This document shows positions 6,543 to 20,734 of a stretch of DNA of 20,734 nt, piece after piece. The notes under the pieces were generated by a model. That model worked only from the letters and a program-made list of their open reading frames with translations, was not told the origin of the DNA and ran no database searches. The stretch is taken from IMG/VR virus record IMGVR_UViG_3300005578_000017, positions 1 through 20,734 of that record; one strand, given 5' to 3'. This DNA is from a virus. Made by a program: the position numbers and the translations under genes. Positions within the stretch are counted from its first letter, which is position 1; every line of letters starts with the position of its first letter.

Positions 6543-7397
6543 ATGATCACTACCTCCCACAGAGTCAAAGCAGAATACTTCGTTGAACCATGGTTTCAGC
6601 GGCGTAGAGAAGAGTTGCAAGAGGAGCCCGGGAGAATCCACAGGAAGATCTGGGAATTTGCGGTGATTGCAGAGACTTTTGGTCTTCTAAATACTTGTCC
6701 TGAATGTTTAGGTTTGGAGCTGTGTGCAGATTGTACAATGTTAGGTCGTTCTAGATTGGAAGGCTCTAAGGTTTTAGGCTTCGGAGTTGGGCGTGAGCCT
6801 CTTCCTTATTGGTTCTATCATCAGGGTTGTTACGTGATGGCTACCGATGCCCCCCTCGATATTGTCCAGGCTGACTGGCTACAATCGGGACAACATGCAG
6901 CCAGTTTAAAACAGTTGCGACAATTAAACCAGAGTACTGACAGTGACGGCCGCTTATTTTATCGCCCCGTCGACATGAATCATATCCCGTCCGACTTATT
7001 ACTAGGCAATTTCGATTTTATTTATTCCGCGGGATCATTCGAGCACCTAGGTGGACTCGATGCTGGTATTTATTTCTTTCTTCGCTCAATGGCAGCATTA
7101 AAACCCGGCGGAATAGCCTGCCATACGACAGAATATAATCCGCTTAGTGATCGGGAGACACTGAACGGCGAAGGCTTGTGCATCTATCGAAAACAGGATC
7201 TTGAAAAATTATCAATCATGCTCCAAGACCAGGGGGATGAGTTGTATCCCCTAGATTTATCCGGTGGAGATCTCGATGAAGACTTGTATATTGACAGAAT
7301 TCCTTATCATGGAATACCGAGCCACTTGAGTTTGTATATCGGACCGCATGTTACAACGAGTATTGTGCTGATTGCACGGCGAGGGGGTGTGAAATGA
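6543..7397 (+). CDS. SAM-dependent methyltransferase with Cys4 insertion
   Basis: This 284-residue protein is a class I methyltransferase. Motif I is at residues 77-88 (VLGFGVGREPLP), the acidic residue ending strand 2 is Asp102 (MATDAP), then come PVDMNHIP (142-149), the motif IV region FDFIYSAGSFEHLG (157-170) and motif V LKPGG (186-190). The SFEH-L-G form is common in methyltransferases acting on sugars or small molecules, and no DNA-methylase signature (DPPY/NPPF or PC) is visible. Ahead of motif I, Cys52, Cys55, Cys61 and Cys64 form a likely structural zinc site. It follows a 63-base purine-rich spacer and ends in an ATGA overlap with a 55-residue gene, itself overlapping a glycosyltransferase. 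The likely target is a glycan; this is inferred from the pairing. Confidence 0.8.
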   Translation: MITTSHRVKAEYFVEPWFQRRREELQEEPGRIHRKIWEFAVIAETFGLLNTCPECLGLELCADCTMLGRSRLEGSKVLGFGVGREPLPYWFYHQGCYVMATDAPLDIVQADWLQSGQHAASLKQLRQLNQSTDSDGRLFYRPVDMNHIPSDLLLGNFDFIYSAGSFEHLGGLDAGIYFFLRSMAALKPGGIACHTTEYNPLSDRETLNGEGLCIYRKQDLEKLSIMLQDQGDELYPLDLSGGDLDEDLYIDRIPYHGIPSHLSLYIGPHVTTSIVLIARRGGVK

Positions 7398-7561
7398 GCC
7401 AATATACCCATGGTGATTTTACTGTCCTAATCGGAAAGCAGATCATAGACGTTGTACGGATTGAATCGAGCGGCAGTCTTCTCATTTATTTTGATGATGC
7501 CTCTACTTTGGAGATTTTCAAGGGATCGAAGTTTCTATTCAAGCCGGATGGTGAAAAGTGA
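7394..7561 (+). CDS. Small hypothetical protein between methyltransferase and glycosyltransferase (55 aa)
   Basis: A 55-codon frame fills the space between the two enzymes. It starts in an ATGA overlap (7394-7397) and ends in a GTGA overlap (7558-7561), so all three are probably translated as a unit. The product (MSQYTHGDFTVLIGKQIIDV) alternates hydrophobic and polar residues and reads like a small all-beta domain: IIDVVRIESSGSLLIYFDD, then STLEIFKGSKFLFKPDG. There is no signal peptide and no Cys. I recognise no family. Coupling to both enzymes suggests it binds or positions one of them or their substrate. Confidence 0.6.
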   Translation: MSQYTHGDFTVLIGKQIIDVVRIESSGSLLIYFDDASTLEIFKGSKFLFKPDGEK

Positions 7562-8889
7562 AGATAATTTGGTGCGGAGATGCTGCGTGTGCTTCGGGTT
7601 TTGCCCGTTGTAGTCATGCGGTCTGCAATTATCTTCATTCACTCGGCCATGAGATCCACATCCTCGGCCTCAATTATCTCGGGGACCCTCACGAGTATCC
7701 ATATACGATTTATCCTTGTTTTCAGCCCTCAGATCTAGGCACCGATCACTATGGTATCGGACGTCTTCCATCTCTCATCCATCGGCTAAAACCAGACATC
7801 GTCGTTCTTCTTCAAGATCCATGGAATGTACGTGGGTATCTTGATAATCTTCTTGCTTCTCAAGTCAACATGCCGCCGATGATTGCATGGTTGGCAGTGG
7901 ACTCAAGGAACCAAAAATCCGCAAAAGAGCTAAACCACTCCCATCTATCTCACGTTGTAACGTGGACAGAATTCGGAGCAAAAGAATTAATTGCAGGCGG
8001 ATACACTGGTCCACTCTCGATCGTTCCTTGCGGTGTGGATGTTGATCTATTTAAGCCATTAGACAAAACTGAGTCTCGGATCAAAGTCCTCGGCGATGAT
8101 TATTCCCAATTACCAGATAATCCTTTCATCGTCGGATACGTAGGCAGAAACCAATACCGGAAGCGTTTAGACCTCACCATCGAATATTTCTCCGATTGGA
8201 TTCACCGATCAAATATTTCTAACGCCTATCTAATGCTCCACATACCTCCCACGGGTGAAGATCACGTTGACATCATATCTCTTGCTCGATATTATGATAT
8301 CGGAGAAAAACTTATCGTCAGTTCCCCTATGCGAGGATTTGAAGAGTCGTCCATGGCTCTAATCTACAACTGTTTTGATGTATTTTTATCCACGTCTCAA
8401 GCCGAAGGTTGGAATCTTCCGGCGCTCGAATCCATGGCGTGCGGAATTCCGGTAATCGTTCCGGATCAAGGTGCGACAGGGCTAGACGGAGGATGGATAA
8501 CCGAAAAAGCAGCAATCCAAATTCCGTGCAATTCTACCGCCTTGACCGCTCCGCATCCAGTGGGTATGTATACGATTGGAGGAATACCAGATAAGGAAGA
8601 AACTATCAATGCACTTGGAGTTGTGTACAATAAAAGAATTCTAGGAGGTCTCGGATTGAAAGTCCAACAGTCTATTCAAGCTGGTGTCAATCTTGCCCAT
8701 TCTTTAACTTGGGAGCAATCCGCGGAGAAATTCACAGAAGTCATTAATCATGTAGTAGACCCACGGAACGAAACTTGTTCTTGGCCGGAATGTAGTAAGC
8801 CTGCTCTTTGCTCTTCTGGAAACTATAACAATGGACTTGTCTGCTCTGATCACTTTAATATCACCAATGGTACACTCGCATGCCTGTAA
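7558..8889 (+). CDS. GT-B fold glycosyltransferase (GT4-like) with C-terminal zinc-binding tail
   Basis: This 443-residue enzyme should transfer a sugar from a nucleotide-sugar donor. The N-terminal Rossmann half begins KIIWCGDAACASGFARCSHA, with the Gly-rich loop for the acceptor side, and contains HILGLNY and IVVLLQDPW. The C-terminal half has IVPCGVD (155-161), the GRNQYRKR donor-phosphate loop (196-203), DVFLSTSQAEGWNLP and the retaining-enzyme E-x7-E motif at Glu283/Glu291 (EGWNLPALE), then SMACGIPVIVPD. Residues 407-432 add Cys407, Cys412, Cys418, Cys429 and His432, probably a zinc site and unusual for the family. The start is GTG 7558, within a GTGA overlap. It ends 10 bases inside the tail-completion gene. 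There is no membrane segment, so it acts in the cytoplasm, most likely on a virion protein or a host glycan precursor. Confidence 0.85.
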   Translation: MKIIWCGDAACASGFARCSHAVCNYLHSLGHEIHILGLNYLGDPHEYPYTIYPCFQPSDLGTDHYGIGRLPSLIHRLKPDIVVLLQDPWNVRGYLDNLLASQVNMPPMIAWLAVDSRNQKSAKELNHSHLSHVVTWTEFGAKELIAGGYTGPLSIVPCGVDVDLFKPLDKTESRIKVLGDDYSQLPDNPFIVGYVGRNQYRKRLDLTIEYFSDWIHRSNISNAYLMLHIPPTGEDHVDIISLARYYDIGEKLIVSSPMRGFEESSMALIYNCFDVFLSTSQAEGWNLPALESMACGIPVIVPDQGATGLDGGWITEKAAIQIPCNSTALTAPHPVGMYTIGGIPDKEETINALGVVYNKRILGGLGLKVQQSIQAGVNLAHSLTWEQSAEKFTEVINHVVDPRNETCSWPECSKPALCSSGNYNNGLVCSDHFNITNGTLACL

Positions 8890-9305
8890 CTTTTGATGCC
8901 AACGCTCTCGCCGCGATGAAGGCCAAAATGGCTGCGATCACAGAGCAGACTCGTGCTAGATCAGCGTCCGCAGTATACGTGGAAGCTAATCTCATAATGA
9001 CGAATGCTAAACAAAATTTTGTTCCCGTCGATCTTGGGACCCTCCGTAATTCTGGTACCGTGAGCCAACCAATTATTGCCGAAGATGGAACAATTTCCAT
9101 TAAACTATATTTCGGTGGTGCTGCTGCCCCTTATGCACTAGCAATTCATGAGCACCCATCTTCTTTCGATCCGCCGAGCTGGAGAGGAAAACCAATACTA
9201 AATTTCCGCGGCAAACAAGGACGTGGCCCTAAATATTTAGAATATCCACTACGTCAGGCAGAAAACGGAATGGCAGAAAGATTAGCGGCGAGAATTAGAA
9301 AATGA
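8880..9305 (+). CDS. HK97 gp10-like tail completion protein
   Basis: This 141-residue protein matches the HK97 gp10 / minor neck protein family that completes the tail top. It has an N-terminal helix with Arg/Ala ([20 protein letters not shown]), the conserved [14 protein letters not shown], a strand pair [10 protein letters not shown]-type followed by [10 protein letters not shown], and the C-terminal helix [21 protein letters not shown]. The PVD-x-GTLR-x-S and YA-x-x-x-HE signatures are the family's hallmarks. The start overlaps the glycosyltransferase end by 10 bases, and the stop overlaps the next ATG (ATGA, 9302-9305). The family usually follows the head-closure gene directly; here the methyltransferase-glycosyltransferase cassette separates them. 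Confidence 0.85.
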
Positions 9306-10732
9306 AAAAAATTATCCCCGTTGCAATTATTCTTCTTATGGGTTCTATCGCGTATAGCCATGCTCAGACCGTTGGTGGAATCTCATCCGGGGCGTTCGGG
9401 GATAAACATTGGAAATCCCCCGTAGCTTCATTTGTAAATCTTCCTTTGTCTGGAAACAGTATCGCGGATACCCGGCGCACTATGGACGATGGGGATGAGT
9501 ATTGGTGGGATGGAATAATCTGGCAACCATCAAATTCAAGTACCATTAGTGGTAGTAATTGGAGCAGTGGAAATACAATTCCTACTGGTGGTAATAATGG
9601 GGATTTTTATTTACAAGACAATGGGGACGTCTGGAAAAACTCCTCTGGTGTTTGGTCTATTGTGACAAATATTGTGGGACCAGAGGGACCGCAAGGGGAG
9701 CAAGGGCTACAGGGAGAGCCGGGATTGCAGGGTCTCCAAGGCCCACAAGGGCTGCAAGGGCCGCAGGGCTCGAAAGGTGATACGGGAGACAAGGGGGATA
9801 CGGGTGACATAGGACCACAAGGAGTACAGGGTATACAGGGTCTCACAGGTGCTACAGGCGCCACAGGCCCGCAGGGTCCAACCGGAGCAACTGGCCCTAC
9901 AGGAGCCGCCGGTCCTGCCGGTTCCGATGGTATCCCACGGACGATTCTAGATGAAGGATCTCCACTTACCCAGCGTACAGATATCAATTTTACTGGTTCT
10001 GGAATTTTCTGTACTGATAATTCTGGATCTGCTAGAACCGATTGTACAATCTCCACACCTGCACATGCATCTACTCATAAAAACGGGGGTTCGGACGAGA
10101 TCTCCACAGCAACACCTACCGCGAATGCTATTCCAAAAGCTGGATCTGGAGGTCAATTAGCATCCGGATGGGTATCACCAGCGGGGTCTACAACTCAATT
10201 TCAATTTAATGATGCGGGCGTGTTAGCGGGCTCCACTTTCACGTGGGACAAAACTACCAGCACGGTTAAATTTGGTAACAATGCAGCTATATGGAGTCCT
10301 GGTGCGCCTGATTTGTATTTTGGAACCAACAACCGATCTGCTGGAGCATGGGTGTATTTCAAAGGATTTTTCTTATCAGACTCTTTCGGTGCCTCAACGA
10401 TGTCCTACGGGAGCAACTCATTTCCGACTACGTTAGGACTTGCGAGCGGCAGCACCATCGGCTGGACGTCTGGTAGTGGATCTGATCAGAGTAAAGATGT
10501 TGGTCTCGCGCGCGATTCGGCTGGTGTTCTACGTGTCACCAACGGTTCCAGCGGCTCCGGTACGGTCAAAGCATCCGCTGTACTCTTGACGCCGCAAGTG
10601 TCACCGCCTGTGACATGTGGTACTGCTGGTACAGAGGGGACTCAGTATTACGATACGTCACACGCACTTTGTATTTGTGGTGCTTCAACTTGGACCAATT
10701 TGACACCAGCAGATGGAGGAAGCTGTTCATGA
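9302..10732 (+). CDS. Collagen-like fibre protein with N-terminal signal peptide
   Basis: This 476-residue protein has four parts. Residues 1-21 are a typical Sec signal peptide: KK, a hydrophobic core [15 protein letters not shown], and SHA before the predicted cut. Residues 22-125 are a globular region with Trp-rich patches ([26 protein letters not shown]). Residues 126-209 are 28 uninterrupted Gly-X-Y triplets. The C-terminal part begins [14 protein letters not shown], a motif common after collagen stretches in phage fibres, and ends in a small domain with Cys-x-Cys ([19 protein letters not shown]). Such architecture marks a trimeric fibre. It is coupled at both ends by ATGA overlaps within the neck/tail operon. 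The signal peptide is odd for a virion protein, so a secreted lysogenic-conversion fibre is the main alternative. Confidence 0.75.
9677..9928 (+). repeat. Collagen-type Gly-X-Y repeat coding region (28 triplets)
   Basis: Twenty-eight consecutive codon triplets encode Gly-X-Y. The first half is rich in Gln/Leu (GLQ, GPQ), the middle in GDT/GDK, and the last third in Thr (GLT, GAT, GPT). At DNA level this gives a tandem 9-base repeat with varied codons, so the repeat is diverged rather than freshly expanded. GXT triplets are the type glycosylated in bacterial collagens. Confidence 0.9.
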
Positions 10733-11133
10733 GAAAAATCGCGATCATCACATCTATTATACTGGCTCTGTCATTATTTGTCTCGTCTAGTGTTTCTGCT
10801 GGCGTGAGGAATTGCACCTCGGCACTGGTAACTGCTGGTCTGTGTACTAGTGCTACTGATGTTCTGTTAACTTTTTCTCTTCCCACTACAGATCCTGACG
10901 GAGCTGGTCCGCGAGTTTCCATTACAATCCAAGTACAGGAAGGTTGTGCACTTTGGTATGGGTATCAAGCAACGATCAATGGATCTCCAAATCCTGAAAG
11001 TAAGGCTCTGTTTTGTGATCGTATGATTCGAACAGATGTACTGAAGAGGTTTGCAGATATCTACTATAATTCTTTAGCAGAAGCACTGAAACAAACACAG
11101 CTTACTGCTACGCCTACAGATACTATTCCTTGA
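10729..11133 (+). CDS. Small Cys-rich exported protein (134 aa, hypothetical)
   Basis: The start is ATG 10729, in an ATGA overlap with the fibre gene. A longer in-frame version from 10615 would run back through the fibre gene and bury the signal peptide. Residues 1-24 ([20 protein letters not shown], then SVSA) form a clear Sec signal peptide with an Ala-x-Ala-like cut before Gly25; there is no lipobox Cys. The mature part holds Cys29, Cys39, Cys73 and Cys96, an even number that could form two disulphides outside the cytoplasm. A beta-type stretch [18 protein letters not shown] is followed by an amphipathic C-terminal helix ([20 protein letters not shown]). I recognise no family. Coupling to the fibre gene suggests a partner or chaperone for that protein. 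Confidence 0.65.
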
Positions 11134-11155: not shown

Positions 11156-12064
11156 GTGGATAGAACACTTTCTATTGGTACTTCGGGTTTAGCTCTATCA
11201 GATATAGGGTTACGTCTGTATGCCGATACTATGAGAATAGAGGCCCCTTCCAACGTCACGTTTACAGAGATCACCGATTCCGGAGGATCATACAATCTAT
11301 CTGGGCTTCCACAGAATCCAGATATCACCTACACAATCACCTACGAATATCCACCCGGGGTTTATTTTTCGGATCGCTGGAAAGGTTCATATCCATTTCC
11401 AAACGTGCCAACGTTTTTTATTATTCCATCGCGGATACCAGATCTAGAATCGGAATTGTTATCATCTACCATACTTCTAAAAAATGGAGTAAGACAATCA
11501 ACAGTATTATCTATTGTAGAGCTTGGCACAATTGACGAACCGGGTGATTATTTAGTCTTTGGATGGGAAGACCCTGATTTCCAAGACAAATATAGATTAC
11601 AGTGGACAATTGAAGGAATAATATATTACTTTGATTGGGTAGGGCTTTACAAACAACCAGAGATAGAAACCAGATATATAGAAATTCTCGCTATCCAGGA
11701 GCCGTTTCCATTCAATATAGACTCCTCGGATAGGGTTATGTTTTCCTGTAATTTTAGTGTTCTATGCACACCTACAAATAAACCAGATAGTGATTTTGTG
11801 ACAATTCTTTCAAACGCAGGATTGATAACACCCAACGTTGATACTTTTATTGGCCCTAAAAAGGAAATACCCGAAGGTGATGGCCCATTCATTACGGTTG
11901 TAAATACTGGCGGATCATCAAGCCTCTTTACGCATGATGGTGAGAAAACACAAAGGCCGAGTGTCCAAATTGTCACCCGGGCAACTGATTACGAAGCAGC
12001 GAGAGACAAAGCAATGTTAATATACAATTATTTAGATGGGATTCACGAGTTGACGGTGGGATAA
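11156..12064 (+). CDS. Tail terminator with extra N-terminal beta domain
   Basis: The last ~100 of 302 residues match phage tail terminator/minor capsid proteins of the type that cap the tail tube: DFVTILSNAGLI, GPFITVVNTGGSSSLFTHDG, then RPSVQIVTRATDYEAARDKA and a closing YLDGIHELTV. The family is usually only 120-150 residues. The first ~190 residues are additional. They start GTSGLALSDIGLRLYAD and continue with FTEITDSGGSYNL and YTITYEYPPGVYFSDRW, a pattern like the Ig-like 'TGL...FTE...G-x-Y' domains found on virion proteins, probably followed by a second beta domain (LVFGWEDPDFQDKYRLQWTI). The start is GTG 11156 with AGGA a few bases upstream. It precedes the tail tube gene, as expected. 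An accidental fusion of two genes is possible, but no frameshift sign is visible. Confidence 0.7.
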   Translation: MDRTLSIGTSGLALSDIGLRLYADTMRIEAPSNVTFTEITDSGGSYNLSGLPQNPDITYTITYEYPPGVYFSDRWKGSYPFPNVPTFFIIPSRIPDLESELLSSTILLKNGVRQSTVLSIVELGTIDEPGDYLVFGWEDPDFQDKYRLQWTIEGIIYYFDWVGLYKQPEIETRYIEILAIQEPFPFNIDSSDRVMFSCNFSVLCTPTNKPDSDFVTILSNAGLITPNVDTFIGPKKEIPEGDGPFITVVNTGGSSSLFTHDGEKTQRPSVQIVTRATDYEAARDKAMLIYNYLDGIHELTVG

Positions 12065-18569: not shown

Positions 18570-20734
18570 ATGCCTTCCTCTACTCCCCTCGGCGTTTCGT
18601 CTCCGGGAATCTCTGCTCCCGGTGTACCCTATTCAGGAACAGATCTATCAATCGCCAATCCATTTCTGTCTCTACTAGCCGACTCTCAATCTATCCGTAC
18701 TTATCTATTCTATGCTCAGCCTTACGATCCAATCACTCGCCAACGCGTCAACGTGAAAATATCCTCGGACGGATTTGGTTCTGATTCTGTTGACTCTTTA
18801 CCCGATGGTACTTCTGCTAATCATTGGTTTTTTCCTAGCGGTCTAGTCACACCCTATAATGCCTCCAATGACGTCATGCAGAACGGCGTTATCTCTGCCG
18901 GTGGTGGCTCAAGTCAAGTTAAATCCTCGGAATCTGTTTCATCTCAGGATCTATCGTCAATTATGCAAGTAGATCTAACAATAGAAAATATATCTGGTAG
19001 GTTTCGTTCTTTATCCCGATATGAATGGGATCAAGCCCCCTGTCAGATTTTTCTGGGTAGACCAGAGTTTAAATTGAGTGAATTTACGACTCTATTTTCT
19101 GGTGTGTGTGGTGCAATCAATCAAGCTGATACTAGTTTAATCCATATTTTGCTTTTGGACTTCTCGTATTTACTCCAAAAGCCACTTCAAGATTCGGTCT
19201 ATACTGGCATGGGCGCAAGTCTCCGTGGAAATGGCACGAACACCTTTGGTTCTGCGACGGTTTCATGTCCCACTGGAGATATGACGTTAGAATTGTATAT
19301 TCGTCCAAAATCTGTATCTAATACTCAGAGATATCTTGCAGGGTGGAGAAATGGTGCAAGCGGCGCTGGGAAGTTTGTCATCCGATTTCAATCTGGATCA
19401 AATAATGATCTAGTATTCCGGATTGTCGATGATGTAGGGACGGAGTTTGTAGTTCATGGTACCCCACTAACAACTGCTCTACATCGTGTTCATATTGCAG
19501 CAGTTAGGTCAGTAACATTCGGAAAAATGCTAATTTACGTTGACGGAGAATTGATCGATCAAAGTGTAATTACTAGTGCATTCACAACGTCTCTTGATAA
19601 TTTTACTACTCTTCGAGAACCAGATACCTCTACGGGTTTCCTTGATGCTGATATAGACGAGATAAGACTATGGAATACTGCACGTACCATTGATCAGATC
19701 AGAGACAACAAAGATAGAGAGCAGATCGTAGGAACGGCTAATCTGATCAGATATTGGAAACATAACGAAGGAACCGGCTCTATCGCCTTTGAATCAATTT
19801 CCGGTGGATCAACGATCGCCGATCTTACCTATTCTGGAACAGTAAAATGGGTAGGGTCTCTCGAAGGTGGATCAGATATCCAAGGCCAAGCACCTCCAGT
19901 TTACGAAGGGGTGAACAGAGAAGTAAATCCAGTTCTCGTCGACTCGCAGAATTACGTCTATGAGATTAGCAGAAGTCCAGACGTTGGAGTAACTGTTTCT
20001 GACGTGAAAGATAAAGGGTCATCGAGTGGAATTATTATCGATGCTCCGATCTCAGACGTTTATGATTGGACACCGGTAGCAGGACATTGTATTACCAGTT
20101 ATCAAGACGGTAGAACATTGCTCCGTCTTGAATCTGCACCACAAGGAACTCTAACCTGTAAGATAACCGGATCAGTATTAGACGCAGCGGGGATTGTCAA
20201 AAGATTATTTACTGTCTACGGTGGCGTTTATCTATTTCAATTAGACCTAGTTGCATTCAACACAGCATCACTTAATTTTCCACAGATCGTCGGAGATGGT
20301 ATTCGTCTCGATTCAAGTACTACAATCTGGCAATTAGCCCAACGCATCATGTATAAATCTGGTGGTTGGGTGACGGTGACACGATTTGGACTAATTACAG
20401 TAAAGATACTTTCCGAACCATCTACCCCGAAATTCAAATTGACAGAAAGAGACATAGCGGCTAATTCAGTCTCAATCATTGCCCGCACAATCGGTTGCAA
20501 AAGAACAAACCTTGGATACCGTTTCTATCAAACGGTACAACAAGGAACGTCTCTATCCACGTCTTTAACAGAGATCCAAAAATCAGATCTCAGTCAGCAA
20601 TACAGGTATATATCTACGCCCGTTGACCAAAATGTGATTTCTATCCGTCCTGCCGCTATTGACTTGATACAATTAACCGGCTATGATAATCCGGTTGAGG
20701 CTTTAGCAGAAGCTGAAAGACGTCAATCTATCTG
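18570..20734 (+). CDS. Tail hub-like protein with inserted LamG domain (3' end outside window)
   Basis: A frame starting ATG 18570 stays open to the last base, giving 721 residues with the end missing. It is the first gene after the tape measure, where distal tail and hub proteins lie. Residues 40-212 look like a phage tail hub module: TYLFYAQPYDP, VDLTIENISGRFRSL, FTTLFSGVCG, LLDFSYLLQKPL. Residues about 214-402 form a laminin-G/concanavalin-type jelly roll, with GDMTLELYIRPKS, HRVHIAAVR, MLIYVDGELIDQS, DADIDEIRLWNTART and LIRYWKHNEGTG. The hub sequence then resumes: SDIQGQAPPVYEGVNREVNP, VLVDSQNYVYEI, and a C-terminal part with VGDGIRLDSSTTIWQLAQRI. No good ribosome binding site precedes the ATG; a stop codon at 18561 rules out an earlier in-frame start. 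Confidence 0.75.
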   Translation, partial: MPSSTPLGVSSPGISAPGVPYSGTDLSIANPFLSLLADSQSIRTYLFYAQPYDPITRQRVNVKISSDGFGSDSVDSLPDGTSANHWFFPSGLVTPYNASNDVMQNGVISAGGGSSQVKSSESVSSQDLSSIMQVDLTIENISGRFRSLSRYEWDQAPCQIFLGRPEFKLSEFTTLFSGVCGAINQADTSLIHILLLDFSYLLQKPLQDSVYTGMGASLRGNGTNTFGSATVSCPTGDMTLELYIRPKSVSNTQRYLAGWRNGASGAGKFVIRFQSGSNNDLVFRIVDDVGTEFVVHGTPLTTALHRVHIAAVRSVTFGKMLIYVDGELIDQSVITSAFTTSLDNFTTLREPDTSTGFLDADIDEIRLWNTARTIDQIRDNKDREQIVGTANLIRYWKHNEGTGSIAFESISGGSTIADLTYSGTVKWVGSLEGGSDIQGQAPPVYEGVNREVNPVLVDSQNYVYEISRSPDVGVTVSDVKDKGSSSGIIIDAPISDVYDWTPVAGHCITSYQDGRTLLRLESAPQGTLTCKITGSVLDAAGIVKRLFTVYGGVYLFQLDLVAFNTASLNFPQIVGDGIRLDSSTTIWQLAQRIMYKSGGWVTVTRFGLITVKILSEPSTPKFKLTERDIAANSVSIIARTIGCKRTNLGYRFYQTVQQGTSLSTSLTEIQKSDLSQQYRYISTPVDQNVISIRPAAIDLIQLTGYDNPVEALAEAERRQSI

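What the first reader, a model, noticed from the sequence alone, without database searches (positions are those of the whole stretch)
9302..11133. Two consecutive signal-peptide proteins inside a phage tail operon
The collagen-like fibre and the 134-residue Cys-rich protein both start with clear Sec signal peptides, and both are ATGA-coupled. Virion proteins assemble in the cytoplasm, so export is unexpected. Options are a surface fibre displayed by lysogens, a superinfection-exclusion pair, or a fibre added to particles outside the cytoplasm, with the Cys-rich partner (four Cys, likely disulphides) as periplasmic chaperone. Coupling to structural genes argues for late expression.
Basis: partly seen in the sequence, partly recalled or inferred. 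Interest (0 to 1): 0.65.

Follow-up and report, generated by a model that had tools for sequence, protein, structure and literature searches.

The report
Exported phage fibre with cysteine-rich partner
An uncultured tailed phage carries, in the middle of its structural genes, a collagen-like fibre and a small four-cysteine protein that both bear export signals, and five related phage contigs keep the same pair of genes or at least the exported fibre, so some tailed phages seem to send fibre proteins out of the cell instead of keeping them with the assembling particle.

Summary
The collagen-like fibre (9302-10732) and the Cys-rich protein (10729-11133) each start with a convincing Sec signal peptide (SP), overlap their upstream genes by ATGA and lie between neck and tail-terminator genes. 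Neither was found in the GenBank phage or GTDB sets searched; uncultured IMG/VR relatives exist. All five known Cys-rich proteins have an SP and directly follow an SP-like fibre. Four have mature forms of exactly 110 residues with cysteines at 5, 15, 49 and 72. A sixth phage keeps the SP-fibre without the Cys-rich gene. The fibre is made of ordinary phage-fibre modules that lack SPs elsewhere (0 of 20 loci for the N-terminal module), and SP-fibres are cysteine-enriched. All six genomes also encode a tandem Ig-like domain fused to varying neck proteins; one exports a tailspike-like protein from the usual receptor-binding position. Best reading: late-made, Sec-exported, disulphide-bonded fibres that act outside the cytoplasm. 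Whether they dock on virions at lysis or act on the host envelope (exclusion or adhesion) is unresolved; docking is slightly favoured. The Cys-rich protein is probably an accessory, not an obligatory chaperone. New variant of a known kind.

The parts
9302..10732 (+). Collagen-like fibre, 476 aa, with Sec signal peptide; mature from Gln22
   Evidence: Pfam Collagen 3.4e-13; PHROG tail-fibre hits to 1.2e-25
9302..9364 (+). Signal peptide [21 protein letters not shown]
   Evidence: hydrophobic N-terminus kept in six cassette fibres with otherwise diverse sequence
9365..9541 (+). Mature N-terminal module (GGIsxxAFGDKxW...LPLSGN...W.G..W), partly the common phage-fibre module LPxTGNtxGD..W.G..W
9674..9934 (+). 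Collagen (Gly-X-Y) repeats
   Evidence: and direct reading
9929..10060 (+). Module PRTIxDEGSxLxQRxxINFxG..xCxDNSGxxRTDCTI with a Cys pair (Cys237, Cys248) that is absent from the relatives without a signal peptide found here
10610..10729 (+). C-terminal Cys module (4 Cys) shared with the L037 and L043 fibres
10729..11133 (+). Cys-rich exported protein, 134 aa, mature 110 aa, Cys at mature 5, 15, 49, 72
10729..10800 (+). Signal peptide [24 protein letters not shown]
11156..12064 (+). Linked third gene: two predicted Ig-like domains (about residues 1-165) fused to a tail-terminator domain (residues 218-297); no signal peptide
   Evidence: Pfam PF12691 1.6e-10; A5/A9 alignments; AlphaFold residues 1-165 mostly pLDDT 70-90; Ig folds in PDB but best Z only 4.6
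8880..9305 (+). Upstream coupled gene: tail-completion/Neck1-like protein
   Evidence: phrog_5 2e-6

Best explanation
A late-expressed cassette exports a phage fibre. Steps: (1) the fibre and Cys-rich genes are translated by coupling from the structural operon (sequence shows ATGA overlaps and no internal terminator; operon expression is inferred); (2) both precursors go through Sec and are cleaved at Ala|Gln and Ala|Gly (predicted); (3) in an oxidising compartment the fibre trimerises on its collagen stem and both proteins form disulphides (inferred from cysteine positions); (4) the fibre then works outside the cytoplasm. The most likely use, only slightly ahead of its rivals, is that the exported fibre meets finished virions at lysis and binds them, plausibly through the Ig-like pair carried on the neck protein encoded by the next gene, giving neck or side fibres. 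The Cys-rich protein would be an accessory of the exported fibre (stabiliser, adaptor or chaperone) that some phages do without. Steps 1-3 are likely (about 0.8); the docking step 4 is a hypothesis (about 0.4).
For: SP-like N-termini on all six cassette fibres and all five Cys-rich proteins, while the sequence after the signal varies. Mature Cys-rich proteins are 110 aa in four members with identical Cys spacing; L037 (117 aa) moves two cysteines but still has four. SP-fibres are cysteine-enriched: median 1.3 versus 0.2 per 100 aa in 45 phage fibres without a signal peptide, p = 2e-4. The C-x10-C pair occurs in 4 of 7 SP proteins and 0 of 11 others, p = 0.011. The fibre is built of phage-fibre modules. 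Cassettes of five phages sit between connector and tail genes. An Ig-like pair fused to different neck proteins (tail terminator in the window and L002; head-tail adaptor in G001) occurs in 6 of 6 cassette SP-fibre genomes, also in G001 where it is not adjacent. G001 also has an SP-bearing beta-helix protein directly after its tail-tip gene. SP-fibre-like genes recur in three other structural operons: after baseplate genes (L074), after a capsid gene (L084), between portal-type and protease/capsid genes (L089).
Against: No tool here tests export or virion content, and no SignalP was available. Disulphides alone do not require Sec export: phage Milano virions carry many disulphides (PMC10491603); whether its proteins carry signal peptides was not examined. 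The six genomes share distant capsid, tape-measure or tail-tip homology, so co-occurrence of the Ig gene may be common descent. L002's signal peptide is weak (missed by the stricter heuristic) and L037's fibre start codon is ambiguous. G002 has a fibre without a signal peptide and several tail-tip proteins carry a LamG domain, so these phages may not need the exported fibre to bind hosts.
Confidence: 0.42

Rival explanations
1. Superinfection exclusion or receptor blocking: the exported fibre and the Cys-rich protein occupy or mask the receptor in the infected cell's envelope, protecting the cell from further phages or progeny from sticking to debris, as Cor or Llp lipoproteins do.
For: A known signal-peptide protein sits among tail genes of lambda (Lom, PMC12309495; Cor and Llp from general knowledge). 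The fibre changes while the signal peptide is kept: L033 and G003 share structural genes at roughly 40-65% but not the fibre.
Against: Known exclusion proteins of this type are small lipoproteins or membrane proteins, not fibres (general knowledge). No promoter signal above shuffles. In a diderm host a periplasmic fibre would not reach the surface without an unknown second step. No similarity between the SP-fibre and other ORFs of the same genome beyond one 28-residue match in G001.
Confidence: 0.25
2. Lysogenic conversion: the fibre is a surface adhesin of lysogens with the Cys-rich protein as partner.
For: The L043 contig has an integrase; collagen-like proteins serve as bacterial adhesins (general knowledge).
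Against: Coupled to structural genes with no internal promoter above shuffles. No integrase in eight other records, though several are fragments. No confirmed relative in GTDB genomes, where prophages would appear, although these scans are pattern-based and would miss diverged copies.
Confidence: 0.13
3. The hydrophobic N-termini are not export signals but virion-assembly or membrane-contact segments of cytoplasmically assembled proteins.
For: Both genes lie in a structural operon; the fibre modules are those of virion-type proteins.
Against: Short positively charged start, hydrophobic core and small residues before a consistent Ala|Gln site in most fibres; a second consecutive signal on a protein with four fixed cysteines; cysteine enrichment.
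Confidence: 0.12

Closest known systems
Neck passage structure (NPS) whiskers of lactococcal 936 phages
   Same: Structure between capsid and tail, with whiskers, encoded upstream of the major tail gene (PMC4759559).
   Different: Signal peptides on NPS were not tested here and none is mentioned in the passages read; no Cys-rich partner is described there.
Lambda Lom (and Cor/Llp-type exclusion lipoproteins)
   Same: A signal-peptide protein encoded among tail-fibre genes (Lom: PMC12309495).
   Different: Lom is an outer-membrane beta-barrel and Cor/Llp are small lipoproteins (general knowledge); none is a collagen-like fibre. No direct sequence comparison was made.
EPcl prophage collagen-like side tail fibres of E. 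coli O157
   Same: Modular collagen-like phage fibres (PMC3368898).
   Different: The main text has no mention of a signal peptide or signal sequence; the domains differ (phage fibre N and C domains).
Agrobacterium phage Milano disulphide-linked collar and neck
   Same: Cysteine-linked neck region of a virion (PMC10491603).
   Different: The collar is a stack of rings, not a collagen fibre; no export signal is described in the passages read.

Membership tests
Collagen-like phage tail fibre | Gly-X-Y triple-helix repeat within a modular phage fibre | tested here: met
   Pfam Collagen 3.4e-13, over its cut-off; PHROG tail-fibre matches, best 1.2e-25
Collagen-like phage tail fibre | No signal peptide, as in the other collagen-like phage proteins surveyed | tested here: not met
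   The surveyed collagen-like ORFs of loci L004-L031 lack a plausible N-terminal SP (L029's flag is at an internal GTG, residue 75); the cassette fibres have one
Collagen-like phage tail fibre | Present in the virion | not testable with these tools
   Needs virion proteomics
Secreted Sec substrate | Charged n-region, hydrophobic core, small residues at -3 and -1 | tested here: met
   Cassette proteins rank in about the top 0.2-4% of 670 ORFs by a home-made score; no SignalP available
Superinfection-exclusion lipoprotein (Cor/Llp type) | Lipobox cysteine at +1 of the cleavage site | tested here: not met
   Direct reading of both N-termini: Gln and Gly, not Cys, at +1
Known family for the Cys-rich protein | Match to Pfam, PHROGs or PDB sequences | tested here: not met
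   No match in Pfam or PHROGs at E 0.1 or in a PDB sequence profile search
Ig-like phage domain (third gene) | Ig fold | tested here: inconclusive
   AlphaFold residues 1-165 mostly pLDDT 70-90; PDB matches are Ig domains but best Z only 4.6 over about 80 residues

The most novel reading that the evidence does not exclude
A tailed phage completes its virion outside the cytoplasm: fibres and even a tailspike-like adhesin are exported through Sec, oxidised in the envelope, and dock at lysis onto Ig-like domains displayed on the neck.
Probability: 0.3. Interest if true: 0.88.

Novelty: new variant of a known kind. Interest (0 to 1): 0.62.

Why it matters
Tailed-phage fibres are taught to be made and attached in the cytoplasm. 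A conserved export signal on fibres made of standard phage-fibre modules, kept while the fibre itself is swapped, points either to a virion completed outside the cytoplasm or to fibres reused on the host envelope. Both can be tested with simple fractionation and virion proteomics, and either would change how fibre genes in uncultured phages are annotated.

Tried and rejected
AlphaFold of the Cys-rich protein with five sequences gave pLDDT 64 and pTM 0.39; its viral fold search gave nothing meaningful. tblastn of the fibre, Cys-rich and third-gene proteins found nothing in GenBank phages; the Cys-rich protein found only E 0.7-0.8 partial matches in plasmids and no confirmed relative in GTDB genomes (pattern-based). 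The five-sequence alignment of fibre N-termini was too variable to search. L035 matched the DNA pattern but encodes no recognisable relative. SP-fibre versus other ORFs of the same genome: no shared region except 28 residues in G001, so a decoy of the phage's own adhesin was not supported. No PDB sequence match for the third gene. Paper searches turned up no title or passage that reports Sec-exported tailed-phage fibres; only a few of the listed papers were read, and the library is open-access only. An unlisted fold in the PDB comparison is no evidence of a new fold.

Full report
Observation. The window is a 20,734-base uncultured virus record. Two consecutive genes carry signal-peptide-like starts: a 476-aa collagen-like fibre (9302-10732) and a 134-aa Cys-rich protein (10729-11133). 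Each overlaps its upstream neighbour by ATGA. They lie between a tail-completion/Neck1-like gene (8880-9305; phrog_5) and a gene with a tail-terminator domain (11156-12064; PF12691 1.6e-10), followed by a major-tail-like protein, a tail assembly chaperone and a tape-measure protein. A home-made signal score puts both near the top 1.5% of 670 ORFs.

Survey. The Cys-rich protein has no match in Pfam, PHROGs, PDB sequences or GenBank phages, no confirmed relative in GTDB genomes, and no plasmid match of weight. A direct search and a degenerate DNA pattern found four relatives in IMG/VR: L002, L003, L034/L038 and L037/L039. All five members begin with a signal peptide and directly follow a fibre gene that does too. 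Four have mature forms of exactly 110 residues with Cys at 5, 15, 49 and 72; L037 is 117 long with Cys at 5, 15, 51 and 61. A set of four kept when two change place fits two disulphides.

The fibre without its partner. Searching with the third gene found L043, a 64.7-kb contig. It has an SP-fibre (MRIKSITFGLLLVSVVVLSPRSVSA|Q) and the third gene, but a 79-aa ORF without a signal peptide instead of the Cys-rich gene. So the Cys-rich protein is not an obligatory chaperone. L033 (the L003 contig) and G003 (the L043 contig) share structural proteins at roughly 40-65% identity, yet their fibres do not match: the fibre changes while the signal peptide stays.

Controls. The collagen-like ORFs surveyed in loci L004-L031 carry no plausible N-terminal signal; the one flag, in L029, is at an internal GTG start (residue 75). 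The N-terminal module LPxTGN...W.G..W occurs without a signal peptide in the proteins of 20 loci read (found; some of these loci are near-identical and some are cut by contig ends). For the module PRTIxDEGS...xCxDNSGxxRTDCTI, one search lists relatives in 19 loci outside the cassette contigs; three of these, L074, L084 and L089, have an SP-like start. The Cys pair is present in four SP-bearing proteins (window, L002, L043, L074) and absent from the 11 distinct relatives counted without a signal peptide (Fisher p = 0.011). Cysteine density is 1.3 per 100 aa in SP-fibres against 0.2 in 45 others (p = 2e-4). These p-values treat sequences as independent, which related phages are not. L074 and L089 score lower in the signal test (about the 95th percentile).

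Wider pattern. SP-fibre-like genes also lie after baseplate genes (L074), after a major-head gene (L084) and between a portal-type head-tail adaptor and a protease/capsid pair (L089). In G001, the 93-kb contig of L034/L038, a 770-aa beta-helix protein with a clear signal peptide (MRIVRTLGTATALALTLASAAAA|Q) directly follows the tail-tip gene, the usual place of a receptor-binding protein. Its tailspike and Beta_helix matches are weak (0.0014 and 2e-4, below Pfam's cut-off).

Third gene. Its first 165 residues are predicted as two Ig-like domains (mostly pLDDT 70-90); the PDB matches are Ig folds with low Z, best 4.6. The rest is a tail terminator in the window and in L002 (phrog_179 1.8e-8) and a head-tail adaptor in G001 (phrog_195 1.1e-5). 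It is present in all six genomes with a cassette SP-fibre, adjacent in five and distant in G001. This suggests Ig-like docking sites on the neck, but these genomes share distant structural homology, so common descent can also explain it.

Interpretation. Export of both proteins is likely. Docking to virions at lysis explains the gene position, the virion-type modules, the disulphides and the Ig-bearing neck protein; receptor blocking or lysogen adhesion explains export but not the neck link. Lambda Lom shows that tail operons can carry signal-peptide proteins (PMC12309495). Milano shows disulphide-rich virions (PMC10491603), so disulphides alone do not prove export. Lactococcal NPS shows a neck-structure locus upstream of the major tail gene (PMC4759559). 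No integrase was found outside L043's contig, but several records are fragments. Host and envelope type are unknown; the only cultured capsid relatives found infect Brevundimonas (31-32%).

Noticed in passing
window 6543-7397 and 7558-8889: A methyltransferase-like protein (sub-threshold Pfam hits) and a glycosyltransferase (Glycos_transf_1, 1.3e-10) are inserted among the connector genes.
   Followed up: no
window 18570-20732: The tail-tip protein carries a Laminin_G_3 (ConA-like) domain (8.3e-17); tail-tip proteins in G001, G002 and G003 also do.
   Followed up: partly
L099 11467-13779 (G001 71467-73779): An SP-bearing beta-helix, tailspike-like protein sits directly after the tail-tip gene.
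   Followed up: partly
L099 16135-16476 (-) and 17492-17851 (-) (G001 76135-76476, 77492-77851): Two small ORFs with signal-peptide-like starts near the tail genes, with similar FTLSGLV/FALSGLV motifs after the likely cleavage site.
   Followed up: no
L043 9720-9959: A 79-aa ORF without a signal peptide takes the place of the Cys-rich gene between the SP-fibre and the Ig-like gene.
   Followed up: no
L067 17647-18129 (-) (G003 37647-38129): A lipoprotein-like ORF (LSGC) near the terminase gene; no PHROG match.
   Followed up: partly
window 9362-9367; fibres of L002, L003, L034, L043; G001 71467-73779: The likely cleavage sites of five cassette fibres and the tailspike-like protein all have Gln at +1 (A|Q or S|Q), which may hint at the host group; sites were assigned by eye.
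   Followed up: no
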